NCBI GenBank assembly: GCA_021789975.1
Contig: JAJYIT010000007.1
Location: 1 to 64,000, forward strand
Reading direction: 5' to 3'
Length of the DNA: 64,000 nucleotides
DNA from: Bacteroidota bacterium
GTDB lineage: Bacteria > Bacteroidota > Ignavibacteria > Kryptoniales > JAKASW01
The position numbers and the translations under genes were made by a program. This document shows positions 28,123 to 59,192 of this stretch, one piece after another; position 1 is the first letter of the stretch; each line of letters opens with the position of its first letter. Under the pieces are notes generated by a model, which saw only the letters and a program-made list of their open reading frames with translations, was not told the origin of the DNA and did no database searches.

Positions 28123-30033
28123 TTATTTCCCATCTCTCTCGACCGGTTCCGCACTGCTTCTGATTTCCGACCTTTTTCCGAAATACCATAGAAGTGCTCC
28201 GAACAGAATCATTATAGCAACCATGACTCCGAGGATCAGTTGTTCGTTTGCCGGGACTCCCGAGAAGAAAATCAAGCTCATCAGAATACCCATTACGATC
28301 GTCGTTCCGCCAACGAGTGGGAATGTCGAAATTTGCTTTTTCCCCGCGCCGAAGACCTCGCTGGCAACATCCACGGGGGTATCCAGTTTCTTGAAAAAGT
28401 CGGAAAGAACCTTGGCCTGCGCCTCTGTCTCGGATGAAAATAGTTTTGAGAAGATGATAAGGCTGATCCCAATCGCCAGCACAGCGATCACAATCACGAA
28501 TAGCATGAGTGTTGAAAGTGGATGAACCGGCGTGGCCAATGCCACCAGGAAAAATACCACACTGACAGCAACTGCGATTCCATATATTGCGCCTTTGCTC
28601 TTCAAGTATAAATTCCCCAGCGAATGCGAAGAGATGAATATTAGGAAAGTTGTGACAGCCTGGGCGTAAATCTGGTAGCCCATGTTCCAACCGAGAGCAT
28701 ACCTGGTTGTCAGACCAATTATGAGTCCCCAGACGATGACCGCAACCGCCGCCCACCGAGACGCTTTCCTTATAAGCAGACCGCAGGCGATTGGAAGTAC
28801 GACAGGAATGTTCAGCATCGTAAAGAAGATCTGCATCATGTTAAAAATTCCCAGCTTGCTATGCTCGAACAATACGGCGAGGCCAATCACGACAATGCCG
28901 ATCGTTACAGACGACCATCTTCCAACTTTGAGGAGTTGCTGGTCCGTAGCCGATGTATTGACTAAACCCTGGTAGACATCCCGCGCCAGAATTGAAGAGA
29001 CAAGATTATACACTGTACTGAGCGTGCTCATCGTCGCAGCAAGCATGGCGGCAAGGAAGACGCCGATGAGTCCGTTCGGCAAAAGTTTCAGGCATAATCC
29101 AACAAAGACCAGGTCCTGCGGGTTATGACCGATGTAGGGTTTGAAGAAAGGTATCGAAGCGAGATTCGGCCAGATGACCCGTGCCACGAGTGGAGGAACA
29201 CCGAAGACAAATGGCACGGTGAGAAAGAGGAATCCCGCTAGCTTGCCGACCCGTTTCGCGTCTTTTTCATTCTTCACGCTGTAAAACCGCTGTGCCTGTC
29301 CGGCGGCTGTGCCGAGCGCCATGATGATAAATATCCCCACCAGCCAGTTCCCGTCGTAATTTAGTCCGTTGTAGAAATGGTGCAAACTGAAAGGAGGCAA
29401 GGATTTCAGCAACGGTGTTACGCCGCCGACAAGATTGAGACTCAACGGCATCACGATGAAAGTAATGCTCAGGAGAATTACGCCTTGAACCACGTCGGTA
29501 ATCGAAACAGCCCATAGGCCTCCCATGAAAGTGTAAAGCAAAATGACGACTCCGGTGACGATGATAACCATCGTAATGTCAAGTCTCATGACAGGTGCGA
29601 GCAATTCACAAGTCGCCGCAAGCTGTACACCCGCAGCAAGGACATAGTTGGCGGACATTACCCACCCAAGGAATTGCTGAGTAGTAACGTTGAATCTTGT
29701 GTACGTGTACTCGACAGGTGATATGGACCGTGTCCTTCTCCATTTTGCCGCGGTAAGTTGAGATCCGATAAAATACGAGATCGACCAAGTGCCGAAGTAC
29801 ATGATCGCAAACAGACCGGTGCTGTAAGCGAACCCTGCAGCGCCGGTGAATGTCCACGCGCTGAAATTCGCCATATACAGCGTCATCCCGGAAACCCACC
29901 ATGGTATCATGCTTCCGCCTGCAAAATATTCTTTCGCACCCTTATTCACGCGCCTGAAATAAAAACCGATGCCAATCATAAAGAGGAAGTATGCAACCAC
30001 CACGGCATAATCAAGTATATCAATTGACTTCAT
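28123..30033 (-). CDS. Sodium:solute symporter (SSS family)
   Basis: 636 residues with about 13 hydrophobic segments. The N-terminus (DYAVVVAYFLFMIGIGFYFRR followed by KEYFAGG) and the conserved FSAWTFTGAAGFAY signature are typical of the SSS family, and the centre includes AAMLAATMSTLSTVYNLVSSILARD, the SSS core segment that lines the sodium site. It imports a sugar, sugar acid or other organic solute with Na+. A C-terminal extension of about 100 residues follows the last core helices and includes further hydrophobic segments. The genes on either side, an FAH-family enzyme and a UroD-type methyltransferase, suggest that it brings in the compound they process. ATG 30033 follows AAAGGTTATGA. 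Confidence 0.92.
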   Translation of the reverse strand: MKSIDILDYAVVVAYFLFMIGIGFYFRRVNKGAKEYFAGGSMIPWWVSGMTLYMANFSAWTFTGAAGFAYSTGLFAIMYFGTWSISYFIGSQLTAAKWRRTRSISPVEYTYTRFNVTTQQFLGWVMSANYVLAAGVQLAATCELLAPVMRLDITMVIIVTGVVILLYTFMGGLWAVSITDVVQGVILLSITFIVMPLSLNLVGGVTPLLKSLPPFSLHHFYNGLNYDGNWLVGIFIIMALGTAAGQAQRFYSVKNEKDAKRVGKLAGFLFLTVPFVFGVPPLVARVIWPNLASIPFFKPYIGHNPQDLVFVGLCLKLLPNGLIGVFLAAMLAATMSTLSTVYNLVSSILARDVYQGLVNTSATDQQLLKVGRWSSVTIGIVVIGLAVLFEHSKLGIFNMMQIFFTMLNIPVVLPIACGLLIRKASRWAAVAVIVWGLIIGLTTRYALGWNMGYQIYAQAVTTFLIFISSHSLGNLYLKSKGAIYGIAVAVSVVFFLVALATPVHPLSTLMLFVIVIAVLAIGISLIIFSKLFSSETEAQAKVLSDFFKKLDTPVDVASEVFGAGKKQISTFPLVGGTTIVMGILMSLIFFSGVPANEQLILGVMVAIMILFGALLWYFGKRSEIRSSAEPVERDGK

Positions 30034-30091: not shown

Positions 30092-31117
30092 TTACGGTTC
30101 ATTCTCGCGTGAATATCGAATGAGTGCCTTCAGATTTTCCGGGGGAGTCAGTGGCGACACTTCACACCCTGAATTCACGATGTGCTTTCTTCCACAGACG
30201 CGGTGGCAGTTCCTCGCGGATTCGTAGACTCTCTCTGGCGGTCCTTCAAGCAAATCGTACACTGTCGAGACATTACCGCTGATCAACTTGTCAGGACCGA
30301 GTTTCCCTCGCGCGTTCGTCAAATCCGCGGGGAAATCCAGTTCAAAAATATCGACAGGGAGTTCGCTCATCTTCGGTATCAATGCGTCCGTATTGCCGCA
30401 CATGTGGAGACGTGTAATGACGTCAGGGTGTTTCTGCTTTATAGTTTCCAGAACGCGCTTCTGGCGTGGTTGAAGGAAACGGTCGTACAATCGCGGACCG
30501 ATTACGCTCGCTGCGGCATCGCTCATCCCGATAGTGTCGGCACCTGCTAAGATCTGCGGAGTCGCGTATACCATCGCAACCTCCGCACAAAAGTCCAGGA
30601 GATCATCGACGAACGGAGGATCGTCGATCAGATCGTACATGATATTGTTAATCCCGCGCAGCTCCGCCGCGAGCGCTAATGGTCCCTCGATCCAGCCGAC
30701 TATTGAAAGCTCTCCGCGCACGTGCTCATACATAACCTCGATTCCCTTGATGCGGTCGTGCATTCGCCCGCCGCCGAGCGGATCAGGTATTCTAAAGGTT
30801 TTAAGTCGCGATTTATCGGACAGGGCCGCGCGTGATTCATTGATCGCCGGGCCCTGATCGTTGAACCAATCTATCGAACCATCTCCTGCGATATCTATAA
30901 CCTCACGCGCAGGATCAGAACAGGTCAGCAAACAATCTATATCATAATCTTCGGCAGTCCGCAGCTGCGCCTCGGCCATTAGCCGTCCATCTTTCGTATA
31001 ATCGATGAATTCCACTCCCACATGTTTCGCAGCAAACATCATGACCATAGGTTGCGCTGGAAGATGGTCAACCGGCTTCCCCGTGATCACATTCCGGACT
31101 CGCTCTAGAGACCGCAT
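30092..31117 (-). CDS. UroD/MtaA-family methyltransferase (zinc-type)
   Basis: 341 residues. The protein belongs to the uroporphyrinogen decarboxylase superfamily that includes the MtaA/MtbA/CmuA corrinoid methyltransferases. It retains the zinc-ligand pattern of the methyltransferase branch: RLHMCGNT (His and Cys) and VNSGCEVSPLTPPENL (Cys), spaced about 75 residues apart. The N-terminus MRSLERVRNVITGKPVDHLP and the EGPLALAAELRG segment also fit that branch. Proteins of this kind move methyl groups between methylated substrates, corrinoid proteins and thiols. A true haem-pathway UroD is unlikely because the catalytic regions differ and the gene is in a catabolic operon. It may act with the MtaBC-like pair encoded at 40764-42824, or on a separate methylated substrate carried in by the neighbouring symporter. 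Confidence 0.85.
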   Translation of the reverse strand: MRSLERVRNVITGKPVDHLPAQPMVMMFAAKHVGVEFIDYTKDGRLMAEAQLRTAEDYDIDCLLTCSDPAREVIDIAGDGSIDWFNDQGPAINESRAALSDKSRLKTFRIPDPLGGGRMHDRIKGIEVMYEHVRGELSIVGWIEGPLALAAELRGINNIMYDLIDDPPFVDDLLDFCAEVAMVYATPQILAGADTIGMSDAAASVIGPRLYDRFLQPRQKRVLETIKQKHPDVITRLHMCGNTDALIPKMSELPVDIFELDFPADLTNARGKLGPDKLISGNVSTVYDLLEGPPERVYESARNCHRVCGRKHIVNSGCEVSPLTPPENLKALIRYSRENEP

Positions 31118-31151: not shown

Positions 31152-33422
31152 TCATGTGCGCTTGACGTTCACTTCCACGGCAAGCTCGCCCGCACTTCGA
31201 TAAGGGAGGACCAACTGACCATCGACAAATTCTGTGGCCACTCCATTCAAAGTAGCGTGGGATTCGCTTTCAGAGAGAGAGACTTTAAGATCTATTTTCA
31301 TCTTACGCACTTTGACATGTGACTCCACTTTTTCAATTCCGCCTCCCAGTCTGGGTCTGATAATCAATTTGTCGAGCATAGGGCGGATTCCGAGAAGGTG
31401 GTCGGTTACGAAGCGTACGGTCTCAACCCAGTTCCAACCAACTATCCCTACAGAAGGGTGACCTTCCGGATAATATTCGAACCAGCCTCCCGAAAGACCG
31501 CCATTGATTTCTGAAAGCCAGTCGATTACGCGCATTCCTTTTTCATAATTGCCCGCTTCCCAGTAAGCTTCGGCAACAAACATGGACGCGAACGGCCACG
31601 GCCCAGGAGGCTCCGGTTCGCTCGAGCTGTTGTAGCGTTCATAACCTCCAATAGACCATCTCTCATTCCACAAAGTCTCAACCCATGCAAGAGTCTTCAA
31701 CGCCAGTTCGCTCTCTGGGTCTATCATCTCAAACATAATCGGAAGGACTTCACTCGTGTCCGGTTCGGTCAGCGGAGTTTTTTCGACTGCGATCGGTGTG
31801 CCAGCCGGCATATTGCCCCTGTTCGGCGGAATCATCGTCTTCTGCCACTCGCCGGCCAGAGTTCTTCTCTTAATGAAATGGCCGTCCTCGATCAATCTGA
31901 ACTTCGGATTCTTCAGGAACGCGTGTTTAATCTGCTCGGAAGCAATTCGCCATCTTGCAGCATGATGGCCGTGTCCGAGTTTTTCCGCGATCTCCGCAGC
32001 TTTTTCCAAACCAAGTATTACCCAGAATTGATAAGCGAGTTCATAACCGGGCTTTACGCCGAACGAATCGGACCTTTCCCAAAATTCCCGTGTGTTGCTC
32101 AACAATCCGGAGTCTGGCTGCCTGAAGAACGGCTTTAGCGGCAGTTCGGCAAGCGCCACGATTTTATCCCAGTACTTGCGCACGGTCGAGTAATCTCCTG
32201 TCCAGCTCAAGTATGCCCATGTTCCGTACAGCAGCTCACCGTTCTGATCAATCTCTGTGAATTCAAAGGCGAAAACCTGGCTGGATTCGACCGTCCTTCC
32301 GTCTTCAGTGACAAACTTGGTGAACATTCTGTCGAAAAGTGTTTTTGCCTCATCGAAGAAACCACTCTGGAGAAATGCCGTCATAACCATGACGTCGTCT
32401 CTCACCCATTCCATTCCGTATTCCCAGATTCCCGAATCACGCTTTCCATTCTTCGCGACATGTGCTTTGAGGCCGGTTCTTGAAAGACTCCAGACGCAAT
32501 TGAGATTTGCGTTGCCGGTCGACAGCGTGTTTTTTTCTCTCCAGTAATCGACAGCACCGGTCCAAAAGGATTTCAAGCTATTTTTCCTCAGCAGCGATTC
32601 GCCGCCGTTAAAATAATAGGCGAAGGTTGCTTCCGTCTCTGCACCCGGTTCCACGATACCTTGATCAGTCCTTATTGTGTAACGGCCAAGCGTTTCTATT
32701 TTCTTTTCATAACAGTACATCCTCAGCGTCGTGAATCCTTTTGCATTCGCAGTCCTATTCTTTGCGTTCGTATAGACCTCATCGAACAACGCGATATTTG
32801 GGTACAGCGTGAGTCCCGTTCCGATCTTGTGGCTGACAGTATCCCGGTTTCTTACATGCAGACGCCTGAAAAGGATCGGTCCTTCACGCGGGACAGAGAA
32901 CTGCTCCTCCATTTCACAATTCTTCTCGCTCCACACGATGCTGACGACCGGCACACCATCAATGTACTTCCAGGCTACGCTCTTAAAACTCTTTGGCGAA
33001 ATACCCAAGAAAGTTCCGTCTACACCGAGCCAGGCAGTTGTATTTCCAAACCCGCGGCCGGCGCTGTAAAGGAATGTGCTCCACTTCTGTGAAAAATGTT
33101 CGGCGTCCATGATCGTAAACCCGAAGAATGAACCTTCATCGGCTCCGGTCGAGTCTTTACAGTACTGGACGACTCCCTGGATTTCTCCGTTGCCGATAAG
33201 GAAGTATTCGACTCCGGGTAAATAGGAAATGAAATCGGCATTCATCCTCTGGTTCGAAGGTGCCTTGTTCGCCCAGGAAGAGACCGGTGACATCTTGCCG
33301 TTCTGCGGCGGGACATCGTGCATGGATTCTTTTGGGAGAATGCGCTGGAGGTTCAAATTCATCCTACTCAGTGCGATTGCGCTGAGCGTCGACTTATACA
33401 TGAAGTCACGTCTTTTCATCAT
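31152..33422 (-). CDS. Tat-exported six-hairpin glycosidase-like protein
   Basis: 756 residues. The N-terminus MMKRRDFMYKSTLSAIAL has a twin-arginine motif (KRRDF), so it should be exported folded. An N-terminal beta-sandwich of about 280 residues is followed by a helical domain from about 300 to 680 with the pattern of six-hairpin (alpha/alpha)6 glycosidases: RDSGIWEYGMEWVRDDVMVM is close to the conserved acidic segment in GH15/GH63-type toroids, EDGRTVESSQVFAFEFTEIDQNG, and SSEPEPPGPWPFA near the end. A family number cannot be assigned. Its closest relative is the broken neighbour at 33423-35677, directly upstream, so the pair arose by tandem duplication. Here the acidic EWVRDD motif is intact. 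Confidence 0.8.
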   Translation of the reverse strand: MMKRRDFMYKSTLSAIALSRMNLNLQRILPKESMHDVPPQNGKMSPVSSWANKAPSNQRMNADFISYLPGVEYFLIGNGEIQGVVQYCKDSTGADEGSFFGFTIMDAEHFSQKWSTFLYSAGRGFGNTTAWLGVDGTFLGISPKSFKSVAWKYIDGVPVVSIVWSEKNCEMEEQFSVPREGPILFRRLHVRNRDTVSHKIGTGLTLYPNIALFDEVYTNAKNRTANAKGFTTLRMYCYEKKIETLGRYTIRTDQGIVEPGAETEATFAYYFNGGESLLRKNSLKSFWTGAVDYWREKNTLSTGNANLNCVWSLSRTGLKAHVAKNGKRDSGIWEYGMEWVRDDVMVMTAFLQSGFFDEAKTLFDRMFTKFVTEDGRTVESSQVFAFEFTEIDQNGELLYGTWAYLSWTGDYSTVRKYWDKIVALAELPLKPFFRQPDSGLLSNTREFWERSDSFGVKPGYELAYQFWVILGLEKAAEIAEKLGHGHHAARWRIASEQIKHAFLKNPKFRLIEDGHFIKRRTLAGEWQKTMIPPNRGNMPAGTPIAVEKTPLTEPDTSEVLPIMFEMIDPESELALKTLAWVETLWNERWSIGGYERYNSSSEPEPPGPWPFASMFVAEAYWEAGNYEKGMRVIDWLSEINGGLSGGWFEYYPEGHPSVGIVGWNWVETVRFVTDHLLGIRPMLDKLIIRPRLGGGIEKVESHVKVRKMKIDLKVSLSESESHATLNGVATEFVDGQLVLPYRSAGELAVEVNVKRT

Positions 33423-35677: not shown

Positions 35678-35708
35678 AGAATGCCACCCTCGATTCTGAA
35701 ATGAGAGA

Positions 35709-37292
35709 TCATAAGCTGTACTCCACCTCCACCACTCCGTGTCCGCTGACCCTGAAATTGGCATCCACGTAGCTGCTTTTTTCGACCTTGCTATTGGTGA
35801 ACCGTATGCTCCTCCTGTTGACTCTCACCGATCGCCCACGAGCTCCCTCGGGAAGGAGGAGGTGCAGTCTCACGTTCGACTTGCCCGTCGTCTGCAGGTT
35901 AATCCTCTTCTGAGCGTGTTCGTGCATGTAAGAATATTCGAAAGAACTCCCGGACGACTCATACACGCAGCGAGCCCCGGCTTCATCTGTGCCCGAGGCT
36001 TCCCAGCGAGGACTGAGAGACACTTCTCCGAACAAGCTCCCTCTGTCCACGATGCCCGCGAGCCCTTCAATCAGGGCGTAGATCATCGCTGAAGATCCCC
36101 AGGTGTCCCCGGGTGACGCGTCGGGGCTTGTGCTCGTCTCTCTAGTCGCGTGCGTGCCGTCAGGAAAATACCACAAAAAGGACTCGCCTCTCTCCGTCAG
36201 CTTCGCATACTTGATCAGAATCTCGAATCCATATTTTTCGAAACCATGATCGAATGCAGCTTTTGCCAGTTCGCCTCCGACGAGCGGCATTATCCCGCCA
36301 TTGCAGTAAGCGCCCTCGACTATTTTCTCGTCTCCGAAAATTCCTGCCGGGAAAGGTGGATCTATACTGAACCACTCAGCAAAAGCCGGAGTCTTTTCAG
36401 CTCTCGCCTGATATTCATTTATAATCGACACCGCCATTTCATGCGTCGGCAAACCACGGTTGATGTCCATCGGATTGCTGAGACTTAGCTGTCTGCTCTC
36501 GTCCACACCTTCGATCTTGACCGGCACCAGCGGAACATGGTGAGAATAAAACCTGCCATTGAAGCAAATCTTGTTTGCCTTCGTTCCTAGCCTCGACGCA
36601 GCCGTCTTCCAGTATTTTGCGCGTTTGGGATTCCTCAGATGAGAGTGCATCAGACCCATGAGAACGAATGCTTCATAATACCCGGAGTTGTCCCCGTGCA
36701 TTATTCCCCAGAAAGTTCTTTCATCAATCTGAAAGTTGAGCCAGCTGTGGCGACCTGCAGTGTAGTCGAAATCCCAGGTATCAATTGTATACGGCCGCTT
36801 CACGAGACCGGTCTTCCTATCCCAACGCCAGGGATCATTGAGAATATAGCTCAGTGCGCGTTCCATCGCCGGCAACATCTTCTTCAACCATGTATTGTCT
36901 CCAGTCGCCTGCCAGACCTGGAACACGGCCTTTACGAATCTAAACTCCACATCGGCTTCGTTAGGCACGCGGACGAACTTCGCCCAGTTCTCTTTTTCAC
37001 AAGGGACCTTTTCCGGAGTCATGGTGAAGTAATCATACAGCCAACCGTCGGCGGTCTGAGTATCGGCAAATAGCTCGACGATGCTTTTGAGGTCTCTCTC
37101 CCAGTATTTGTATGCGCGCAACGAATCTGCAACGCCGCGAATCCAAATGCTGGGTGCGTCAGGATCGCGGTAACCGTGGACATTCTTCCCCATCACACTG
37201 TAATTGACAGTGTTCAGTTCAAAGAAACCTTTTACTCTGGGGAAAAGGGCGTCGAGCGCCGCATTGCCTGTTTTCACGAACATATCGCCCAT
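35709..37292 (-). CDS. Cytoplasmic six-hairpin glycosidase-like protein (GH63/amylo-alpha-1,6-glucosidase-like)
   Basis: About 527 residues from ATG 37292, preceded by GAGAAGGA; a TTG at 37313 would extend it by seven residues. There is no signal peptide. The helical domain runs through WTYD-like pairs: YTIDTWDFDYTAGRHSW, DERTFWGIMHGDNSGYYEA and later VEGAYCNGGIMPLVGGELAKAAF, which resembles the terminal helices of GH63/GH100-type (alpha/alpha)6 enzymes. A C-terminal beta-domain follows (LLLPEGARGRSVRVN). Substrate unknown. The gene lies directly after the MetE-core-like gene and before the broken Tat-exported homologue, so it may process an oligosaccharide delivered into the cytoplasm. It is related to, but distinct from, the exported paralogues. 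Confidence 0.8.
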   Translation of the reverse strand: MGDMFVKTGNAALDALFPRVKGFFELNTVNYSVMGKNVHGYRDPDAPSIWIRGVADSLRAYKYWERDLKSIVELFADTQTADGWLYDYFTMTPEKVPCEKENWAKFVRVPNEADVEFRFVKAVFQVWQATGDNTWLKKMLPAMERALSYILNDPWRWDRKTGLVKRPYTIDTWDFDYTAGRHSWLNFQIDERTFWGIMHGDNSGYYEAFVLMGLMHSHLRNPKRAKYWKTAASRLGTKANKICFNGRFYSHHVPLVPVKIEGVDESRQLSLSNPMDINRGLPTHEMAVSIINEYQARAEKTPAFAEWFSIDPPFPAGIFGDEKIVEGAYCNGGIMPLVGGELAKAAFDHGFEKYGFEILIKYAKLTERGESFLWYFPDGTHATRETSTSPDASPGDTWGSSAMIYALIEGLAGIVDRGSLFGEVSLSPRWEASGTDEAGARCVYESSGSSFEYSYMHEHAQKRINLQTTGKSNVRLHLLLPEGARGRSVRVNRRSIRFTNSKVEKSSYVDANFRVSGHGVVEVEYSL

Positions 37293-37316
37293 CGGGTCCT
37301 TCTCAGCCCTCAAATG

Positions 37317-38339
37317 TCACCGATCACCAAATTCTTTCCGAACTATTTTAGTGCCGTCCGCCATGGCCTTCAGTTTTCCAAAAGCGCGGTCTCGCGGCAT
37401 GAACTTCATGCCGCAATCAGTGGTAATCCAGACTTTCTCCTTCGGTATGACTTTGAGCGCCCGACGTATCCGGTCGGCAACCGTTTCAGCAGATTCGACC
37501 TTTTCATCTTTAACGTCAACCACACCGACGGCAATTTCCTTATCAGTTTTGTATTTCGTGAAAAGCTCAAGCGGCTCCATGTCGTTCACAGCAAACTCCA
37601 GGCAGAGTTGGGAGGCATTCACGTTGAGTATCTCCGGGAACAAATCGGCATAGGTGCCCGTGAAAAGTTTCTTCAGCTGATAATTCCCGTAGCAGACGTG
37701 AAGTGCAATTTTGGCTTTCACACCGTCGACCAACCTGTTGAATGCCTCGACGAGCCACGGCATATCCTGAGGGTAGCCGACCCAGACCGGTTCGTCAACC
37801 TGAACGAACTCGCAGCCAGCGTCGACCACCTGCTTGAGCTCCGCATTCAGAACGTCCGCAAGATCGAAGACCAACTGCTTCTCATCTTTATAATACTCGT
37901 TCGTTGCACGTTTGGCAAGCATCTGCGGGCCCGTGATGGTCACCTTGGGAAATGCCGACGCATATTGCTTCAGGAATGCAAAGTGTGCCGCCATTCCGAT
38001 GCTTCTTGCGCGCCTGACCTTGTCGACAATCACCGGATCGGCCATCTGTATCGTGGGATCAAGGTTCCCTATCGATTTCATTCTGCCGCTGTTGTCGAAC
38101 CCGTGAATCCTCTTTGAAAAGAAGTACACCATGGTTTCCCGCCGCAATTCACCATCGGTAATGACATCCAGACCCGCAATCTCCTGATCCTTGATGCACG
38201 ATTTCACCGCATTGTCGTGTGCCTCTGTAATTTCCTTCTCAGTCAATCTATTTTCTCTGGCTGCTTCCCGCGCGACTTCCAGCCAATGCGGCAGGGAGTA
38301 ACTTCCGACGAGCGTTACTGGCAACAATGGTAACTTCAT
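37317..38339 (-). CDS. MetE-core-like methyltransferase (cobalamin-independent methionine synthase fold)
   Basis: 340 residues, equal to the C-terminal catalytic half of MetE without the N-terminal folate-binding half. All zinc ligands of the family are present: His214 and Cys216 in LHVCYGN, Glu248 in LCLEFA and Cys309 in TTDCGMKF. The substrate end has GLDVITDGELRRETM and VQVDEPVW, the homocysteine-binding side. Stand-alone core-MetE proteins are known in archaea and some bacteria, where several use methylcobalamin or a methyl-corrinoid protein as methyl donor instead of methyl-folate. That is relevant because a corrinoid protein and MtaB are encoded about 4 kb upstream in the same run of genes. 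A methionine-synthesis role is plausible, and methyl transfer to another thiol is an alternative. Start ATG 38339 after GAGAGGAA. Confidence 0.85.
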   Translation of the reverse strand: MKLPLLPVTLVGSYSLPHWLEVAREAARENRLTEKEITEAHDNAVKSCIKDQEIAGLDVITDGELRRETMVYFFSKRIHGFDNSGRMKSIGNLDPTIQMADPVIVDKVRRARSIGMAAHFAFLKQYASAFPKVTITGPQMLAKRATNEYYKDEKQLVFDLADVLNAELKQVVDAGCEFVQVDEPVWVGYPQDMPWLVEAFNRLVDGVKAKIALHVCYGNYQLKKLFTGTYADLFPEILNVNASQLCLEFAVNDMEPLELFTKYKTDKEIAVGVVDVKDEKVESAETVADRIRRALKVIPKEKVWITTDCGMKFMPRDRAFGKLKAMADGTKIVRKEFGDR

Positions 38340-38433
38340 TTCCTCTCTCCTATGTTCTATCTATTTGAAAAATCCAGTCATAAAAATTCTTCCAGGCTCG
38401 ATCGCGATCCGTCAAACGATAATCTGGAACAGG

Positions 38434-40767
38434 TCACTGAAGATTAGGCGGATAATGTGACGGCATGTGCCACATGAAGTTCGGATCAATATACGGGACA
38501 TCGTTCTCGTGTTCTTCCATCAGCGCTATCTTCTTTTTTAATAGCTGTCCGAAATCTTCTCCATATACATGTAAGTTTTCTCCGATAGTAGAAACCGCCA
38601 TGAATTCGAGAGGACTGTGTTCCCAGAGATCAAGGAGTCCCTTAGTGTTGGCAAGTTCAGCCTGGACCATCGCTTTTACTTTTCCCCCGTAGACCTGTTT
38701 CTCCGCCGGAGAATTGGCTTCAAGGTACCCGTGGACCCCTTCGATCCACGCAAGCATGTCACGCAATGTCATCGCAAAATGTTTGTAAGTTCTCAGCCGA
38801 ATCAACACATCTTCGAAAACCCGTGACTGTTCGCTCTTTACAGGAATTGATTTGAGCTGCTCACTTGCAAGATCAATCGCACGTTCAACCTCAGGCATGA
38901 CAATGCGATCAAACTGCTCCTTCTTGTCGGCAGCCTGTTGCACCGTCAGAAAATTCCAGAGCATATCGTTGTTCATATCGATACGAGTCGGATTATTGAA
39001 AGTGGCGAGCATAAACTTCTCATAATACGCTCTTTGGCTGTCAGGTATTGCTTCAATGTTCGGGACAAACGGCCTCGTCAGAAGTTTATACCACGGAAAT
39101 CCGAAAGTCGCGTACGGAACGCCGTCCGGAAAACCAGTCGCGGATGAATCTGCAGTCAACCATATCTTTATGAGATCGCCTGCATATTTCTTGCCGACCC
39201 ATCTGTCGGCCACGTCGGAAAGAATCCGGTCCAAAGTAAGCGACGGGTCGATCTGAAATTCGCCGATAACTTCACCGTTTATATCGTATGGATCAAGCGA
39301 GTTAGGTGTTGTCTCGGACAGTGCATAACGATAATTCTCTTTGTAATCCTGAGCAAGCTGGGAGTAAACCAAACGGGGAAAAATCTCGCCGATTGAATTG
39401 TCATTCGCAGCATTGATTGTCATCTGTGTTTCAGCGCCGTATTTTTCCCACACCTTACGCATCTTCTCGTTGAATGCAATCTGGTCTTTCGACTGGCCGG
39501 ACCAGTCGCCGACGTCAATACCCTTTCCCAATCCGGGAATAATATATTTCAATTCCAATGGTGTGAACGAGCCGAGATCGACGATCAGCCTGAATTTCGG
39601 ATTGAATTTTCTCGCCTCATCGAGAATTAAATGGTAATAAGCCAGGACATTGCCAGCCGCCTTCCTGGCAACATAATCATCGTCTTTCCATTCTCGGACC
39701 AGATACGGCCCTCCGTTGCGGCCGGCGTACAACCGGTTAACAAACTCGAATCCCGATCCGCTGTCATTAGACCAGATCTCGATGAAGCTGAGATCGGGCA
39801 CCGCCTTCATCATGTTGTCGACCAGCTCACGATAGTGCTCCTGAACGGCAGGGTGTTCAATCGTTAGAGTGTATCTCGGCAAATAACTTTCCCGCGGATG
39901 ATCAACTCTGGCGCCACGGAGGAATCCGTATTTGTACCAGAAATCGTTCGGCATTGTTCGCGGAGAACAAATCTCAAGTCCGGGAGCAATGCCGTATTTC
40001 TTCGCGAGTTCGACGTTGCGCTTCAGAAAGTTGAGGTTGGCCTGCAAATAATACGCGGGGTAATATCCCCTTATCAGTTTGCTCGACACAAACTGATCAA
40101 GGTCCGGCGTGTAGTCGTAAAACTCTGCGTATTTGTCGCCCGGAGGACCTTGTTCGAACGGATGAGGAACGCCCAGACCATTGACGGTTATGTGTGTGAA
40201 TCCTTCACTGGCCACCTGCCTGACATACGCCGCCGGATCGAAACCGCGTGCGTATCGGCGAGTGCCCACCAGAAAGTCGCTGTAATTCCTGAGCCATCTG
40301 AAAGCAGGCGTCATGATCTTCCCGTTCACAAACTCGTCGACGTTCTTTCCGCCCCATCTCTTTACCTGAGAATACATTGCATACAAGTAGTGTTCACTCG
40401 AGACGACGAGTTCACCAGTTCCGTTCCTGTCGATCCTGAAGTACATCCATTCGTTATCTGATGATTTCAGTCGCGCTTGATTCGGAAGCGGAGCAAAGTT
40501 TTCGTCGGCGACCGAGACTCTGAACTCACCTGTTTGGTTTGAACCCGCCCCCTCTTTCATTACAACGACCCTGGCATGCTGTGCAAGTTCCTTCACCATT
40601 GCTTTCGCCACCATCATGTCGACTTCTCTTCCGTTTGCCGGACACGCCACAACTTTGACTTTATTCATCGCTTCACTAACGGTCGAAGCTAATGAAGCAG
40701 ATGTATTTATAACCAGACAAATTCCGAAGCCAAGCGAAAAACAACTCTTTAGAAAAGGCTTTATCAT
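38434..40767 (-). CDS. Secreted glycosidase-like TIM-barrel protein of unassigned family
   Basis: 777 residues with a signal peptide (MIKPFLKSCFSLGFGICLVINTSASLAS). The N-terminal ~170 residues look like the small alpha/beta domain found in front of GH20, GH67 and GH115 barrels. The barrel includes FLRGARVDHP, the conserved TLTIEHPAVQEHYRELVDN, and FIEIWSNDSGSGFEF, whose acidic residues are the best candidates for catalysis. A helical C-terminal region follows. I cannot place it in a numbered GH family. A cytoplasmic paralogue (no signal peptide) is encoded at 53755-56073. It is translationally coupled to mtaB, overlapping it as ATGA, which makes a link between this exported enzyme and methyl-group handling more likely than chance. 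Confidence 0.75.
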   Translation of the reverse strand: MIKPFLKSCFSLGFGICLVINTSASLASTVSEAMNKVKVVACPANGREVDMMVAKAMVKELAQHARVVVMKEGAGSNQTGEFRVSVADENFAPLPNQARLKSSDNEWMYFRIDRNGTGELVVSSEHYLYAMYSQVKRWGGKNVDEFVNGKIMTPAFRWLRNYSDFLVGTRRYARGFDPAAYVRQVASEGFTHITVNGLGVPHPFEQGPPGDKYAEFYDYTPDLDQFVSSKLIRGYYPAYYLQANLNFLKRNVELAKKYGIAPGLEICSPRTMPNDFWYKYGFLRGARVDHPRESYLPRYTLTIEHPAVQEHYRELVDNMMKAVPDLSFIEIWSNDSGSGFEFVNRLYAGRNGGPYLVREWKDDDYVARKAAGNVLAYYHLILDEARKFNPKFRLIVDLGSFTPLELKYIIPGLGKGIDVGDWSGQSKDQIAFNEKMRKVWEKYGAETQMTINAANDNSIGEIFPRLVYSQLAQDYKENYRYALSETTPNSLDPYDINGEVIGEFQIDPSLTLDRILSDVADRWVGKKYAGDLIKIWLTADSSATGFPDGVPYATFGFPWYKLLTRPFVPNIEAIPDSQRAYYEKFMLATFNNPTRIDMNNDMLWNFLTVQQAADKKEQFDRIVMPEVERAIDLASEQLKSIPVKSEQSRVFEDVLIRLRTYKHFAMTLRDMLAWIEGVHGYLEANSPAEKQVYGGKVKAMVQAELANTKGLLDLWEHSPLEFMAVSTIGENLHVYGEDFGQLLKKKIALMEEHENDVPYIDPNFMWHMPSHYPPNLQ

Positions 40768-42173
40768 CGACTACTCCCATCTTTTATTGACTCGATTGGT
40801 TGCAGCCCGTAACTCTCCGGCAGAAAAAGATAGCCGTAGGACGCAGCCATAGATTCGGCGAGTGTCATTTCATCATCCGGAAGAGATAGAAGTTCCCGCT
40901 CTATGCGATCCAGCCATGACAACTCTTTCGAAGCTAACTTAAGGCTCCCGTTTGCGGCGGCATCTCTAATTATGTAGACCGCTTCGAGCGATGCAGCGAT
41001 CGTCATCCTGTAATGCGAATCTTCTTCAACAATTGCCGATGCGATTCTGACAGTCGACTCCGGCGATAGCACGAGCGCCTGTGGACTCAAGTGAACGTCC
41101 GATTCTACCAGAAGTTTCTGATATGATTGTTCTGTTCCACCTTCGAGCGCCTTGTTGAAAAGCCTGCAATCGTAAGCCAGGAGTTCCATGAAAGCTTCCG
41201 GTGCCGATCCGGAAAGCAGGCGTATATTCTGAACCGACTCGTTGCTCCAGAGATCACACATGGAAGCCGCCACATTTCCGACTGGGCTGAAGTGAGCGCA
41301 GCTTGCGGATTTCCCTTCCATGGCTATCGGAGCGCCTGTTATTGCTTTTATGACCGGCCCTTCATACGCACAATCCTTGGAAGGGCCGTAAGCTCCGCGT
41401 TCATACGCAACCAGGCTTCGTACCACGCTTGCCGCACGCACTATCGCGGCAAGTACTTCCGGCAGCATCCCCTGCGAAGACAATTGCATGGCCGTGTTTG
41501 CAAAGCCGCACGCCGAATCACCTCCCGGAACAACATTGCGGGCGGAGCAGATCGTCAGAATGTTATCCCAAAGGAATTCCATGTCCCTTGGAGCAAGAAT
41601 CCCCAGCGCGAAAACAATTCCTCCGACATCGCCGTGCATCAATGCGACATCATCGACTTCCTTGCCGCCCACAGACTCAATCGAAAGGATGTCGGCGCCT
41701 AAGCCGGCACATTGCCGGAACGATTCCATGAGCAAATCCCACTGTTTTCCGGATCGCAAAACCGGAGGACGTTCGGCATCCCGAATATCGGTGGGAGTTA
41801 CTCTCAGTGCACCGGGGAGTCCATATTCCTCGTGCGCGCGTTTCAGCGCGAGGTGGAGAATGTTAGTTATTTCTGCTCCCCACCCGGGGTTCTCGGTCAT
41901 CGGCGGCAGCAACTCAAACTCCACCATTAATCCCGGCAGCCGCAAGCGCTTTGCTGCACGAACAATCATGTCGCCGATTTCCTGATACTCTGTCACGACC
42001 CTCCCCCAGTTTTCCCGATCAATCAGCATCGTCGGAAGCGTGAAGTTTATTTCGGGATACACTTCTCCTGCTCCCACCTTGAGGCCGAAACCGCAAGTGG
42101 CGGGAGTCGGTGCTTTCCCAAACATTAGTTCTGACGCACCGTCAACTGCAAGTTTCTTAAACGATCTCATCAC
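40764..42173 (-). CDS. mtaB: Methanol:corrinoid methyltransferase-like protein (MtaB)
   Basis: 469 residues; GTG 42173 or ATG 42170 as start. The sequence is strongly similar to MtaB of methanogens and acetogens along its whole length: APTPATCGFGLKVGAG, FELLPPMTENPGWGAEI, ILSIESVGGKEVDD, DSACGFANTAM, GPSKDCAYEGP and MEGKSASCAHFSPVGN. The three zinc ligands of the methanol-activating site are present at Glu166, Cys222 and Cys268. Their positions are within two residues of Glu164, Cys220 and Cys269 in the Methanosarcina barkeri enzyme. MtaB transfers the methyl group of methanol to the cobalt of its corrinoid partner, which is encoded just upstream. Unlike methanogens there is no obvious MtaA of standard type beside it. 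Possible methyl donors are methanol released from methyl-esterified polysaccharide or another methoxy compound; the sequence does not settle this. Confidence 0.93.
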   Translation of the reverse strand: MMRSFKKLAVDGASELMFGKAPTPATCGFGLKVGAGEVYPEINFTLPTMLIDRENWGRVVTEYQEIGDMIVRAAKRLRLPGLMVEFELLPPMTENPGWGAEITNILHLALKRAHEEYGLPGALRVTPTDIRDAERPPVLRSGKQWDLLMESFRQCAGLGADILSIESVGGKEVDDVALMHGDVGGIVFALGILAPRDMEFLWDNILTICSARNVVPGGDSACGFANTAMQLSSQGMLPEVLAAIVRAASVVRSLVAYERGAYGPSKDCAYEGPVIKAITGAPIAMEGKSASCAHFSPVGNVAASMCDLWSNESVQNIRLLSGSAPEAFMELLAYDCRLFNKALEGGTEQSYQKLLVESDVHLSPQALVLSPESTVRIASAIVEEDSHYRMTIAASLEAVYIIRDAAANGSLKLASKELSWLDRIERELLSLPDDEMTLAESMAASYGYLFLPESYGLQPIESIKDGSSR

Positions 42174-42185
42174 TTCAACCTATCA

Positions 42186-42824
42186 TCACCCGATTGCGAG
42201 CAATTCTTTTACCTTGTCGACTGCCTTCACGGCATCCCTTGCGTATCCGTCTGCACCTATTTCCTCGGCGAATTTCTCACTTACAGGAGCCCCGCCGACA
42301 ATAATCTTTACTTTGGAACGATGCCCCGCGCCGCCTATCGCCTCGATGACCCCTTTCATGTTCAGCATCGTAGTAGTCAGCATGGCTGAGATTGCAAGCA
42401 TTGCGGGTGCCTGTTGCTCGATTGCATCTACAAACTTCTGCGGCGTGACATTCACTCCGAGATCGACTATTTCGAAACCCGCTCCTTGAAGAAGTATGCC
42501 CACAAGATTTTTCCCGATATCATGGATATCGCCCTTCACCGTGCCCATCACAATCCTCCCAAGAGGCTCCACGCCGTCTTTAGCAAGAAGCGGTTTCAAA
42601 ATTTTCAATGAAGCATGCATAGCGGTCGCCGATTGCAGCACTTCAGGCAGATACATTTCTCCGATCCGCATTTTTTCTCCCACTACTCCCATCCCGACAA
42701 TCAAACCGTTGTTCAATACAGTTTGCGGCGATGCTCCAGCACCCAACAATCGCTTAGTCAACTCCACGACCTTTTCTGAATTTCCATCCTCCAATGATTG
42801 CACAAGTTCTTCAAGTTCACTCAT
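42186..42824 (-). CDS. mtaC: Corrinoid protein (MtaC/MtbC-like)
   Basis: 212 residues with the two-domain build of methyltransferase corrinoid proteins. The helical cap (about 1-85) includes LNNGLIVGMGVVGEKMRIGEM. The B12-binding Rossmann domain (about 88-212) has the base-off motif GTVKGDIHDIGKN, in which Asp99, His101 and Gly104 form the D-x-H-x-x-G signature with His101 as the lower cobalt ligand, and a late IIVGGAPVS segment with the conserved Gly-Gly. It accepts a methyl group from MtaB and hands it to a second methyltransferase. mtaB follows by 12 bases, the usual arrangement of a substrate-specific pair. GAGGGC precedes ATG 42824. Upstream, 42825-42935 is a 111-base gap before the UroD-like gene, with no promoter I could identify. 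Confidence 0.95.
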   Translation of the reverse strand: MSELEELVQSLEDGNSEKVVELTKRLLGAGASPQTVLNNGLIVGMGVVGEKMRIGEMYLPEVLQSATAMHASLKILKPLLAKDGVEPLGRIVMGTVKGDIHDIGKNLVGILLQGAGFEIVDLGVNVTPQKFVDAIEQQAPAMLAISAMLTTTMLNMKGVIEAIGGAGHRSKVKIIVGGAPVSEKFAEEIGADGYARDAVKAVDKVKELLAIG

Positions 42825-42935
42825 AGTGCTGCCCTCTATTAGTCAATACTCTTACTAAATGTTGGTTGTTTACTAATTGGATTAGATACGGTTCGCTTAC
42901 TTATTCTGCTTGTTCAAGAAATACTGCTGAAACAA

Positions 42936-43988
42936 TCATAAGAAATAGCCTGTTGTCCTTAAGTTGTACTCAATCGCAGCGTCTCTTATCGCTTTTAAGT
43001 TCTCTGTAGGAGTGCCATATGGAACGACTCCGGTTCCGAGGATATAACCCGGGTAGCCGCGAGATTCTTCCAGACCTGTAACGGCCCGCCGGTGTAGATC
43101 CGAAGGTTCGGCAACAAGAAAATCAGTCGGATCGATATTCCTGCGAAAGGCACGCCTGTTCTTTGCGCAATCGATCAGGAATTTACTCACATCATTAGAG
43201 AAGTCACAGAGAATGTTATTCGCTCCAGTCTCGATGTACGAGTCCAGAATCTTCGTCGTGTTCCCACCAATGATTAGCGGGACATGCTTCTGGCCTAACG
43301 CATGGAAATGTTCGATCATCCTGCGTGTCGGCTGCAACACGAGATCTCTGTACATTTTCGGCGACAGCAATTCGGGGGACGCTTGCGAGTCAAAGATTAT
43401 GACTTCGCAACCCTCATTTATATAAGCGCCACCGAATCTGATTGCCACTTCGGATGTAAAGGAAAGGAGCTCCGCCACAAATCCAGGATTTGTAACGGTC
43501 AACATGAACAGATGTTCAGGCCCAACGAGATTCGCCGCCATCGAGAACGGCCCGGAGAGCGCACCGCGAACAGGGACCTCATCCCGAATCCTTCTCTTTA
43601 CGTTTTTCGCTGCCTCCAGATTGACCGGCATCCTTCCATCTCGGTGGGAATCCGGCAGATCAATTGACGTTAACCTGGTAGTCTCCGAGAAGACAGCACT
43701 GTCGGCACTAATCGCGGGTATAGAAGTGTCGTCACCTTCATAATAAGTCACCTTACAACCTACCGCCTCGGCCTCGACGTTATATACATCTATGCCGATT
43801 GTCAGCGCATCAGGCTGTACAACCTCATACTCCGTCAGTACCGCTTTTGTCAATAAATCAACGTCTCTGGATACGTTCGAAGGTGTATCGTTGATGAACC
43901 ATGCCTTGTGCTCATATATAGCGGGCACAAACGGGACGCGATCTGTTCCCGTACATTCAAGCGCTTTTTCAAGTCGATCGTTTTTCAC
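42936..43988 (-). CDS. UroD/MtaA-family protein lacking zinc ligands
   Basis: 350 residues beginning at GTG 43988. The fold markers of the UroD/MtaA superfamily are clear: RLEKALECTGTDRVPFVP at the N-terminus, RGALSGPFSMAANLVG and SPELLSPKMYRDLVLQPTRRM in the middle, and YGTPTENLKAIRDAA near the end. At the position of the methyltransferase zinc-binding His-x-Cys-Gly-Asn, this protein has PLIIGGNTTK (Ile and Gly), and the second Cys region reads LGTGVVPYGTP instead of G-C-x-V-P. Zinc-dependent thiol activation is therefore not expected. It may bind the methyl-corrinoid partner without zinc chemistry or have another role. It precedes mtaC by 111 bases and follows a decayed gene. Confidence 0.85.
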   Translation of the reverse strand: MKNDRLEKALECTGTDRVPFVPAIYEHKAWFINDTPSNVSRDVDLLTKAVLTEYEVVQPDALTIGIDVYNVEAEAVGCKVTYYEGDDTSIPAISADSAVFSETTRLTSIDLPDSHRDGRMPVNLEAAKNVKRRIRDEVPVRGALSGPFSMAANLVGPEHLFMLTVTNPGFVAELLSFTSEVAIRFGGAYINEGCEVIIFDSQASPELLSPKMYRDLVLQPTRRMIEHFHALGQKHVPLIIGGNTTKILDSYIETGANNILCDFSNDVSKFLIDCAKNRRAFRRNIDPTDFLVAEPSDLHRRAVTGLEESRGYPGYILGTGVVPYGTPTENLKAIRDAAIEYNLRTTGYFL

Positions 43989-53754: not shown

Positions 53755-56073
53755 CTAAAAGCGGAAGGAAGAAAGTCTCCACTGGAAATCGGGGTCGACA
53801 TAAGGCTCGTCGTCCTGGCGTCCCGTCATCAGAGCAATCTTCTTCTTGAGCAGCTCCCCGAAGTTTCGTGAATAAACAAAGGTTGTTTCATTCTCACTCG
53901 AAACTATCATCCAATTCGAAGCGGAGTTCTCCCAGAGATCCAACAGCTCCCTTGTATTGTCAATCTCATCCAGAACCATCTCCCGCAGAATATGGTGGCA
54001 GCGGGACCGCACGCCGCCATCTTCCGACCCGAGATACTTGTGGACTCCGCCTACCCACGCCGCTACATTTCTTTGTGTTCTCATCCAGCACTTCAAGGCT
54101 CGCAGTCTCTCCAATTGATCCACTGCGAAACGACGGCCAACTTCATCAATGCTTTTCCTGCTGGCCACCTCCGCGCACTTGATGGCATCGTTCAGTGGAG
54201 GGATACAATTTCTGTCAATAAAATCGACGGCTCTCAATGCGCGTTCCGGATCCAACAGGTCAAATCCAACATCGTAGCGCATGTCGATCCTACACCGGTT
54301 GTGCGGGGTAGCGAGCAAGTACTTCTCATAATACGCCCGGTCCTCCTCGGGGATGCAATCGATGTTGGGGACCAGTGGTCTCACTGCGAGTCTGTACCAT
54401 ACTCCCCAAGCGGCGTAAATCCAGACCGGGATCGGAAATGCACGGACGGCATCATCTGCCAATTTCCAGATCTCCAATGCTGTCGGGGCACTTTCGCCGG
54501 CCCATTCCACGGATTTTCGTTGAAGGAACGCGTCTATCTTGAAATCTTCTTGAACCCCGAATGCCCGGACAACTTCCTGATTAATATCAAACGGAGCGAA
54601 AGACTCGGGTATACCTCCACCCAGAACGCATACATTGCTGACGCCGGCTCTTTTCATGCCGCTCAATTTTTCGCTCACGAGATAGGGAAAAGGAATTCCT
54701 ATCAATGGTTCGTGATTCCAAATAATTCCCGGTGCAAAAACAATGTCTGCATTTACTCTCTTATCCGATAGTCGACCCAGTGCAATCTTCTCGGATTCAT
54801 CGAACTTGTTGTGGAGTGCCGAAGTGTGAATCTGCACATCCTCATCAAATCGAGGATGCTTATATGACAGCTCCCAGCCCTTCCCTTTCAGCGAGGAAAC
54901 CTCAAGATCCAGTCCCTCGTCCAACTGGTCGAGAATATGTTCATGTTCCGACCAAAATGGCTCCATCCTCAGAAGCACTCGGAATACCGGATTGGTCTTC
55001 CGGCCTGCGTCACGTATCAACTTCATGAAGTTGACAATATTCCGTGCTGCCGCGGCTTCAATTTCACCGCTACCCAGCCATTCTCTAACGAGGTACCCGC
55101 CACCGTTCCTCCCCACGTATAGTGAGTTGGTGTATTCAAAACCGGCCCCGCTGTCGTTCGACCAGATCGACATGTATGAGAGAGACGGCACTTCATTCAT
55201 CAGGTTCTCCACCATCTCTGAATAGTGTGCCCTGACTACCGGATGTGCCACCGACAGATTGTATCTCGGCTTGAAACTTCGGAGCGGGTGGTCGACCCGT
55301 GCTCCGCGGAGCATTGGATACTTTTCCAGCAATGCATCGGGGACCGATCGCGGTTCAAAACACACGATCCCCGGTTCCAGGCCGAAACTTTCCGCAATAG
55401 AGGCATTGCTCTTCAGATACTCGAGGTTTGCCCGCAGGTACTCTTCCGGATAAAAACCTCTGTTAAGTTCGCTCGAAACAAACTGATCAAGCGCCGGACA
55501 ATAAGTGTAGAACCGCGGATAGACCTCATCTTTTGGTCCGCTCTCTATCGCCTCGGGGAAAGCGAGTCCGTTAATTTCAGCATGCGAGTATCCGCAGCGA
55601 GCCAGTCCCCGAAAATATTCAGTGCGATCGAAGTTTTCCACGGTCCGCGCGTGCTGGGTTACAAAAAGATCATACAGAGGTCTCTGGCTGCAAAATGCAG
55701 GGTAAATAAACCTCCCCATGCTGAACTCTTCAATGCCCAGGTTAGCATAGTCATCGGTGGCCAAAGTGAAAACCAGATAGAGAAGGTTAGGCTGAGACGC
55801 AAGCAGGTCGATGCCGGTTTCCGCGTTGAATCTCACGAACATCCAATTTGTGGAGGAGGGTTTTCCGACGGCGTACTGGTTCATCATCGAAAGCGAGTTT
55901 ACTACACCGACTCTAAGCGACGACCTCCGCCCGGATCCGATCTCCCCGATCTCTTTCCGCTCCAATTGCGGAAATAATGCGATCAATTCGCCCACTACCG
56001 TCTGTTCTACTTTTACTTTCGGCGAAAGGGATGCCACTTCTTTTGCCCCTTTCAATACTTCAATCAGAACCAT
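53755..56073 (-). CDS. Cytoplasmic glycosidase-like TIM-barrel protein, paralogue of 38434-40767
   Basis: 772 residues with no signal peptide, in contrast to the paralogue at 38434-40767. The two share the barrel blocks: YPMLRGARVDHP, LSVAHPVVRAHYSEMVENLM, MSIWSNDSGAGFEY, GRNGGGYLVREW and, towards the end, RDRAYYEKYLLAT-like and NFGELLKKKIALM. The N-terminal ~100 residues form the preceding alpha/beta domain. The same candidate acidic residues (WSNDSG and the Glu after GAGF) are kept, so both should be active. The family is not assigned; GH67/GH115-like is possible. It overlaps the end of the TIM-barrel isomerase gene by ten bases, and precedes the long non-coding region. The cytoplasmic location suggests action on imported oligosaccharides. 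Confidence 0.75.
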   Translation of the reverse strand: MVLIEVLKGAKEVASLSPKVKVEQTVVGELIALFPQLERKEIGEIGSGRRSSLRVGVVNSLSMMNQYAVGKPSSTNWMFVRFNAETGIDLLASQPNLLYLVFTLATDDYANLGIEEFSMGRFIYPAFCSQRPLYDLFVTQHARTVENFDRTEYFRGLARCGYSHAEINGLAFPEAIESGPKDEVYPRFYTYCPALDQFVSSELNRGFYPEEYLRANLEYLKSNASIAESFGLEPGIVCFEPRSVPDALLEKYPMLRGARVDHPLRSFKPRYNLSVAHPVVRAHYSEMVENLMNEVPSLSYMSIWSNDSGAGFEYTNSLYVGRNGGGYLVREWLGSGEIEAAAARNIVNFMKLIRDAGRKTNPVFRVLLRMEPFWSEHEHILDQLDEGLDLEVSSLKGKGWELSYKHPRFDEDVQIHTSALHNKFDESEKIALGRLSDKRVNADIVFAPGIIWNHEPLIGIPFPYLVSEKLSGMKRAGVSNVCVLGGGIPESFAPFDINQEVVRAFGVQEDFKIDAFLQRKSVEWAGESAPTALEIWKLADDAVRAFPIPVWIYAAWGVWYRLAVRPLVPNIDCIPEEDRAYYEKYLLATPHNRCRIDMRYDVGFDLLDPERALRAVDFIDRNCIPPLNDAIKCAEVASRKSIDEVGRRFAVDQLERLRALKCWMRTQRNVAAWVGGVHKYLGSEDGGVRSRCHHILREMVLDEIDNTRELLDLWENSASNWMIVSSENETTFVYSRNFGELLKKKIALMTGRQDDEPYVDPDFQWRLSSFRF

Positions 56074-59154: not shown

Positions 59155-59192
59155 TTGGCTTCCTCCGGGCAGTGCACAAGCATCTTTCACGT

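What the first reader, a model, noticed from the sequence alone, without database searches (positions are those of the whole stretch)
35709..43988. MtaB-MtaC one-carbon module embedded in a glycan-utilisation region
mtaB (Glu166, Cys222, Cys268 intact) and mtaC (DxHxxG intact) lie between an exported glycosidase-like protein, with which mtaB is translationally coupled, and a UroD-like protein, and a core-MetE-like protein follows. Seen: the residues and the couplings. Known: MtaB moves the methyl of methanol to a corrinoid protein in methanogens and acetogens. Inferred: here methyl groups or methanol from methylated or methyl-esterified polysaccharide may be channelled to the corrinoid protein, outside a methanogenic setting. 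I have not seen this arrangement described as a polysaccharide-linked demethylation system.
Basis: partly seen in the sequence, partly recalled or inferred. Interest (0 to 1): 0.87.

Follow-up and report, generated by a model that had tools for sequence, protein, structure and literature searches.

The report
Methyl-transfer module in sugar-polymer gene cluster
An uncultured soil/sediment bacterium carries the enzyme pair that methanogens use to take the methyl group off methanol, but here it sits inside a large, conserved gene cluster for digesting acidic polysaccharides, which suggests that these bacteria use it to strip methyl groups from methylated sugars, a step otherwise described as an oxygen-dependent reaction.

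Summary
MtaB (40764-42173, minus strand) is a full-length PF12176 protein (520 bits) with Zn ligands Glu166, Cys222 and Cys268. MtaC and a core-MetE are real, and mtaB overlaps the exported protein's gene by 4 nt.

The exported protein belongs to an unnamed family with a GH138/GH67 (uronidase)-like fold. MtaC-MtaB-uronidase is conserved in Ignavibacteria. The uronidase family is present in 20 of 20 distinct mtaB genomes tested, but in only 3 of 390 phylum genomes without mtaB (p=7e-10). The surrounding supercluster is largely syntenic in another genome. Other mtaB loci and the RACo activase loci lie beside different carbohydrate genes (GH2, GH29, GH97, GH78 with rhamnose isomerase). The genome lacks the CdhD subunit of the Wood-Ljungdahl CoFeSP.

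Best reading: a corrinoid O-demethylation branch of a uronate-type glycan pathway, passing methyl from a methylated sugar to MtaC and then to folate or homocysteine. Free methanol is the main rival. The substrate is not shown.

Two corrections. The UroD beside MtaC has lost its Zn ligands; others in the cluster (30092, 58027) keep an HxC motif. Bacterial mtaB outside methanogens and acetogens is already reported in Acidobacteriota.

The parts
40764..42173 (-). MtaB, methyl-corrinoid methyltransferase (MT1), Zn ligands E166/C222/C268
   Evidence: PF12176 520 bits; 2I2X_A E=2.7e-92; ligands invariant
42186..42824 (-). MtaC-type corrinoid protein (GDIHDIGKN)
   Evidence: PF02607 + PF02310; corrinoid MtgC/MtaC NCBIfam hits below cut-off
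42936..43988 (-). UroD-family protein without Zn ligands (PLIIGGNTT), conserved beside MtaC or the uronidase-like gene
   Evidence: PF01208; motif lost in all members of this subtype; adjacency
38434..40767 (-). exported protein with GH138/GH67-like (uronidase-like) fold; ATGA-coupled to mtaB
   Evidence: no Pfam; AF2 pLDDT 67.6; Foldseek GH138 E=1e-11, GH67 E=3e-10; junction
37317..38339 (-). core MetE-like methyltransferase (candidate methyl acceptor enzyme, homocysteine)
   Evidence: PF01717; Zn and homocysteine residues
35709..37313 (-). six-hairpin glycosidase-like protein (weak)
   Evidence: PDB 6ex6 E=0.36; PF07944 E=0.02; conserved in L013, L023, L128, G404
30092..31117 (-). UroD-family protein with HxC...C motif: candidate MT2 (MtaA/CmuA-like)
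   Evidence: TIGR01463 153 bits, below cut-off 235; LHMCGNT...SGCEV
58027..59190 (-). second UroD-family protein with HTC motif; its orthologue is directly upstream of mtaC in L014, L016, L054, L063, L078: candidate MT2
53755..56073 (-). paralogue of the uronidase-like protein without signal peptide; its orthologue follows mtaB directly in most Ignavibacteria
   Evidence: alignment A1; synteny
31152..33422 (-). uncharacterised large protein of the cluster (six-hairpin-like, weak)
   Evidence: conserved in L013, L023, G404, G401
28123..30033 (-). sodium:solute symporter (SSF)
   Evidence: PF00474
43992..46247 (-). two ORFs (44748-46247, 43992-44723) of a conserved unknown protein, one ORF in L013/L023
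46573..53101 (-). outer-membrane/secretion block: PorV-like, large secreted protein, CarboxypepD_reg receptor-like protein
61118..63297 (-). GH88-like protein and SDR dehydrogenase; homologues adjoin the RACo-DUF1638-MtaC cassette in G404, G406 and RACo in G407
16357..17286 (-). ROK-family protein recurrently close to mtaB in relatives
   Evidence: PF00480
24025..28073 (-). catabolic genes shared with mtaB loci of relatives: cyclase, DHODH-like, enolase-superfamily, FAH hydrolase

Best explanation
This is a three-component corrinoid methyl-transfer module working as the demethylation branch of a uronate-type glycan pathway. Exported enzymes (GH138/GH67-like uronidase, six-hairpin glycosidase-like proteins) cut a methylated polysaccharide; products enter through the outer-membrane receptor and the symporter; cytoplasmic enzymes finish the cleavage. 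MtaB, a cytoplasmic Zn enzyme, takes the methyl group from an O-methyl sugar or uronic acid (4-O-methyl-glucuronate is the leading candidate) and methylates cob(I)alamin on MtaC. The methyl group then goes to tetrahydrofolate through a Zn-type UroD protein (58027-59190 or 30092-31117) and/or to homocysteine through the core-MetE, while the demethylated sugar enters the catabolic genes. Shown by sequence: the genes, catalytic residues, gene order, co-occurrence, and absence of CdhD/CoFeSP and of RACo in this genome. Inferred: the order of the steps, the acceptor, and above all the methyl donor.
For: MtaB catalytic residues. MtaB-uronidase-like adjacency in the window and 11 related loci. Uronidase-like family present in 5/5 mtaB genomes versus 3/390 others in a phylum sample (p=7e-10) and in 17/17 further-tested mtaB genomes, including those where it is not adjacent. 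The fold matches GH138 and GH67, both uronic-acid enzymes. A heparinase/alginate-lyase-like protein sits 1-3 genes upstream of mtaC in relatives. 22 window proteins have homologues in G404 C46:170-244 kb, with a UroD-RACo-DUF1638-MtaC cassette at its end. Independent carbohydrate contexts for mtaB: GH2+GH78 (own contig C40), GH97, GH2+GH29, GH38, GH9+GH2. RACo beside L-rhamnose isomerase, FGGY kinase and GH78. The variety of glycosidases without recognised esterases favours methyl ethers over methyl esters.
Against: No substrate was tested, and the pocket could not be modelled. The uronidase model has only moderate confidence (pLDDT 67.6; TM about 0.5). Known MtaB use methanol. Cytosolic MtaB would need the methylated sugar imported. 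RACo is missing in this genome, so reactivation of MtaC is unexplained. Not every mtaB is next to a glycan gene (L022 is flanked by unrelated genes as far as its contig goes). Shared ancestry inflates the co-occurrence counts.
Confidence: 0.58

Rival explanations
1. MtaBC uses free methanol. Methanol released from methyl-esterified pectin or uronoyl esters, by this cell or its neighbours, is captured while the cell grows on the polysaccharide, and its methyl group goes to folate or methionine.
For: All characterised MtaB act on methanol; Acidobacteriota mtaB in peat were interpreted as methanol-specific (PMC10805028). One Acidobacteriota locus (L033) has a glucuronyl-esterase-like domain about 7 kb from mtaB.
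Against: No esterase family was recognised in the window. Motifs next to the Zn ligands differ from M. barkeri MtaB and from the closer-to-barkeri MtaB of L061/L064 in both Ignavibacteria and Acidobacteriota clades, e.g. H87->L, D219->A, Q222->F, D297->S. Tight linkage with exo-acting glycosidases of many kinds is not expected for a diffusible alcohol.
Confidence: 0.28
2. The module mainly supplies methyl groups for methionine (MtaC to core-MetE) from a small methylated metabolite; its place in the glycan cluster reflects co-regulation, not a shared substrate.
For: Core-MetE with complete Zn and homocysteine residues three genes from mtaC; in L029 (Candidatus Solibacter) a core-MetE gene overlaps mtaC.
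Against: MetE sits beside the exported uronidase-like gene even where mtaB is elsewhere (G404, G401). A MetH is present, split over ORFs, so methionine does not need it.
Confidence: 0.1
3. The MtaB-glycosidase adjacency is operon coincidence in a few related genomes without functional meaning.
For: Many loci are related by descent; several MAG contigs are short.
Against: Co-occurrence 5/5 versus 3/390 (p=7e-10) and 17/17; several different glycosidase contexts and separate RACo contexts.
Confidence: 0.04

Closest known systems
MtaABC methanol:CoM methyltransferase (Methanosarcina) and MtaBC of methanol-using acetogens
   Same: MtaB fold and Zn ligands, MtaC two-domain corrinoid protein, UroD-family partners
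   Different: 38% identity to M. barkeri MtaB; below the methanogen equivalog cut-off (424 vs 720 bits); no RACo and no CoFeSP in the genome; glycan cluster; altered motifs beside the Zn ligands
Acidobacteriota mtaB reported as methanol genes in peat (PMC10805028)
   Same: sister clade of the window's MtaB
   Different: reported without a polysaccharide context; cassettes there carry DUF1638-RACo beside mtaB
P450 oxidative demethylation of 6-O-methyl-D-galactose in porphyran utilisation (PMC10033563)
   Same: removes a sugar O-methyl group inside a polysaccharide pathway
   Different: needs O2 and yields formaldehyde; here a corrinoid methyl transfer would be anaerobic and conserve the methyl group
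GH67 alpha-glucuronidase / GH138 RG-II enzyme
   Same: overall fold by Foldseek
   Different: about 10% identity, no Pfam match; catalytic residues not mapped
Core methionine synthases MesA-D (PMC7857596)
   Same: single MetE catalytic domain with Zn and homocysteine residues
   Different: genome lacks CoFeSP, on which MesB/MesC are thought to depend; placed with MtaC instead

Membership tests
MtaB (PF12176) | full-length profile match above cut-off | tested here: met
   520 bits vs 25
MtaB (PF12176) | Zn ligands Glu/Cys/Cys | tested here: met
   E166, C222, C268
Methanogen methanol MtaB equivalog (NF040651) | score above 720 bits | tested here: not met
   424 bits
Methanogen methanol MtaB equivalog (NF040651) | methanol as methyl donor | not testable with these tools
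   needs biochemistry
Three-component corrinoid methyltransferase system | MT1 + corrinoid protein encoded together | tested here: met
   mtaC-mtaB, 12 nt gap
Three-component corrinoid methyltransferase system | Zn-dependent MT2 (HxC...C) | tested here: inconclusive
   adjacent UroD lacks it; 30092-31117 has HxC and a C-terminal Cys, 58027-59190 has HTC with a shifted Cys
Three-component corrinoid methyltransferase system | reductive activase (RACo/RamA) in the genome | tested here: not met
   none in own genome; present in 15/17 related mtaB genomes
Acetogen / Wood-Ljungdahl methylotroph | CoFeSP (CdhD) | tested here: not met
   only a sub-threshold hit, inside MetH
Glycan-utilisation cluster | outer-membrane receptor-like protein, glycosidases, transporter, sugar catabolism | tested here: met
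   largely syntenic in G404
GH67 alpha-glucuronidase | sequence-family match | tested here: not met
   no Pfam match
GH67 alpha-glucuronidase | fold | tested here: inconclusive
   Foldseek E=3e-10, TM about 0.45, model pLDDT 67.6
Core methionine synthase (MesA-D) | Zn ligands H/C/E/C and homocysteine residues | tested here: met
   H214, C216, E248, C309; GS13
Core methionine synthase MesB/MesC | genome with CoFeSP | tested here: not met

The most novel reading that the evidence does not exclude
A distinct bacterial MtaB subfamily (Ignavibacteria plus Acidobacteriota clades) is a cobalamin-dependent O-demethylase of methoxy sugars or methoxy uronic acids, such as 4-O-methyl-glucuronate, giving an oxygen-independent way to recover C1 units from methylated polysaccharides.
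Probability: 0.45. Interest if true: 0.9.

Novelty: new variant of a known kind. Interest (0 to 1): 0.77.

Why it matters
Methylated sugars, above all 4-O-methyl-glucuronate of hardwood xylan, are abundant. The sugar demethylation found in the literature searched (porphyran) is a P450 reaction that needs oxygen. A corrinoid route would explain how anaerobic or facultative degraders in peat, sediment and lakes remove these methyl groups, would show that mtaB is not a safe marker of methanol use or methylotrophic methanogenesis in metagenomes, and would place part of the wetland C1 budget with polysaccharide degraders. It is directly testable with purified MtaB and MtaC.

Tried and rejected
MtaB homologues on plasmids: none. 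Sequence search of the exported protein and its alignment in PDB: no meaningful hit, only chance cyanide-dihydratase matches. The other large cluster proteins gave no solid family. Acetogenic setting: rejected, no CoFeSP. The UroD next to MtaC as normal MT2: rejected, no Zn ligands. The PL-like protein model of relatives has low confidence (pLDDT 54.6), so its fold match rests also on the profile hits to heparinase III. Methanol-pocket comparison with 2I2X in three dimensions was not possible (no coordinates); only sequence differences are given. No open paper on MtaB pocket residues was found. Literature searches found no description of MtaB linked to polysaccharide or methoxy-sugar demethylation, but subscription papers are not in that library.
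Full report
Observation. The named genes are present on the minus strand at the stated coordinates. MtaB is a full-length member of PF12176 (520 bits). Its only solved relative is M. barkeri MtaB (2I2X_A). Glu166, Cys222 and Cys268 align with the Zn ligands and are invariant in all sequences compared. MtaC has both corrinoid domains. The core-MetE keeps its Zn and homocysteine residues. mtaB and the exported protein's gene overlap as ATGA. None of this is chance.

What surrounds it. The module is part of a same-strand catabolic cluster that fills the window: a receptor-like CarboxypepD_reg protein, a PorV-like protein, a symporter, GH38, six-hairpin-like proteins, ROK and PfkB kinases, sugar dehydrogenases, xylose-isomerase-like proteins, an enolase-superfamily protein, FAH hydrolase, and three UroD-family proteins. 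22 window proteins have homologues in G404 contig C46, 170-237 kb; at 238-244 kb that cluster continues with UroD-RACo-DUF1638-MtaC-UroD. In G404 MtaB itself lies on another contig.

The exported protein. It has no Pfam family. Its AlphaFold model (pLDDT 67.6) matches GH138 (RG-II) and GH67 alpha-glucuronidase best (E about 1e-11 to 3e-10, TM about 0.45-0.5). I call it uronidase-like; membership of GH67 is not claimed. A cytoplasmic-looking paralogue is at 53755-56073.

Conservation. A scan of GTDB genomes found 55 mtaB loci: Ignavibacteria, Kryptoniota and related Bacteroidota MAGs, KSB1, Acidobacteriota, Verrucomicrobiota, Methylomirabilota. MtaB followed directly by the uronidase-like gene is found in L013, L014, L015, L016, L017, L018, L019, L021, L023, L026 and L063 besides the window. 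L013 and L023 keep the whole window operon. The uronidase-like family occurs in 8 of 395 genomes of the phylum; all 5 mtaB genomes have it and 3 of 390 others do (Fisher p=7e-10; relatedness not corrected). In the genomes of 17 further loci it is present in 17; two of these are the same assemblies as in the phylum sample, so 20 distinct mtaB genomes were tested.

Other glycan contexts. The genome's second, broken mtaB on contig C40 follows a GH2 and a GH78 gene. Other mtaB neighbours are GH97 (L024, same family in L053), GH2 and GH29 (L025), GH38 (L020), GH9 (L053), GH9+GH2 (L027), a rhamnosidase-like six-hairpin protein (L042), MGH1/GH63-like (L044), GH59 (L062), and heparinase-like plus glucuronyl-esterase-like (L033). 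These were chosen by hand from the neighbourhoods, so they are counts without a background rate.

RACo. The corrinoid activase is in 15 of 17 related mtaB genomes but in 13 of 395 phylum genomes (association with mtaB p=3e-4 on few genomes). It is usually unlinked to mtaB but lies in carbohydrate loci: beside GH88-like and SDR genes homologous to window 61118-63297 (L100-L102), or beside GH78 in L103, L105 and L106, with L-rhamnose isomerase and an FGGY kinase confirmed in L103. The window genome, its two nearest mtaB relatives and G004 have none. How MtaC is reactivated there is open.

Phylogeny. The window's MtaB falls in a supported Ignavibacteria clade, sister to the Acidobacteriota clade; M. 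barkeri and two MtaB closer to it (L061, L064) lie outside. Both bacterial clades share replacements in motifs next to the Zn ligands and in other conserved stretches. This fits a changed substrate or partner; it does not prove it.

Mechanism. MtaB would methylate MtaC from an O-methyl sugar. The acceptor enzyme could be a Zn-type UroD: 58027-59190, whose orthologue is next to mtaC in L014, L016, L054, L063 and L078, or 30092-31117 (HxC...C). The core-MetE could pass methyl to homocysteine; a core-MetE gene overlaps mtaC in L029. The UroD beside MtaC in the window has lost its Zn ligands in every member of its subtype. No CdhD/CoFeSP is in the genome, so this is not acetogenesis. MTHFR and MetH are present, so methyl-folate can be used.

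Methanol or methoxy sugar. Known MtaB use methanol, and peat Acidobacteriota mtaB have been read that way (PMC10805028). Against methanol here: no recognised esterase in the window, many different glycosidase partners, and a tight tie to one uronidase-like family. For a methyl ether: the GH67-like fold and heparinase/alginate-lyase-like partner point to uronic acids, and 4-O-methyl-glucuronate is a common methylated uronic acid (general knowledge). I put the methoxy-sugar route at about 0.58 and methanol at about 0.28.

Novelty. Bacterial mtaB and corrinoid systems are known, and sugar demethylation by P450 is known (PMC10033563). A corrinoid demethylation branch in a polysaccharide cluster was not found in the searched literature. 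Hence: new variant of a known kind, with a substrate claim that is directly testable.

Noticed in passing
33423-33872 and 33935-35764: A tandem paralogue of 31152-33422 broken into two frames; L013 and L023 hold one intact copy.
   Followed up: partly
G000 contig C40, L074:1-896: A second mtaB, broken by stop codons near the contig end, directly downstream of GH2 and GH78 genes.
   Followed up: partly
G000 contig C45, L073:12864-14659: A UroD gene with HxC motif and a second MtaC, divergent from a GH3/receptor-like/sigma-factor glycan locus.
   Followed up: partly
42936-43988 and orthologues: A UroD-family subtype without Zn ligands, conserved beside mtaC or the uronidase-like gene; function unknown.
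   Followed up: partly
L078 (G004 C8) 8404-9636: A 410-aa ORF without Pfam family overlaps mtaB, i.e. is translationally coupled to it, in another genus.
   Followed up: no
L103, L105, L106: RACo gene near an alpha-L-rhamnosidase and UroD proteins; in L103 also L-rhamnose isomerase and an FGGY kinase: possible link to O-methyl-rhamnose.
   Followed up: partly
L029:1097-3038: A core-MetE gene overlaps mtaC in a Candidatus Solibacter MAG.
   Followed up: no
G000 contig C84, L075: MetH is split over three overlapping ORFs (assembly error or true split).
   Followed up: no
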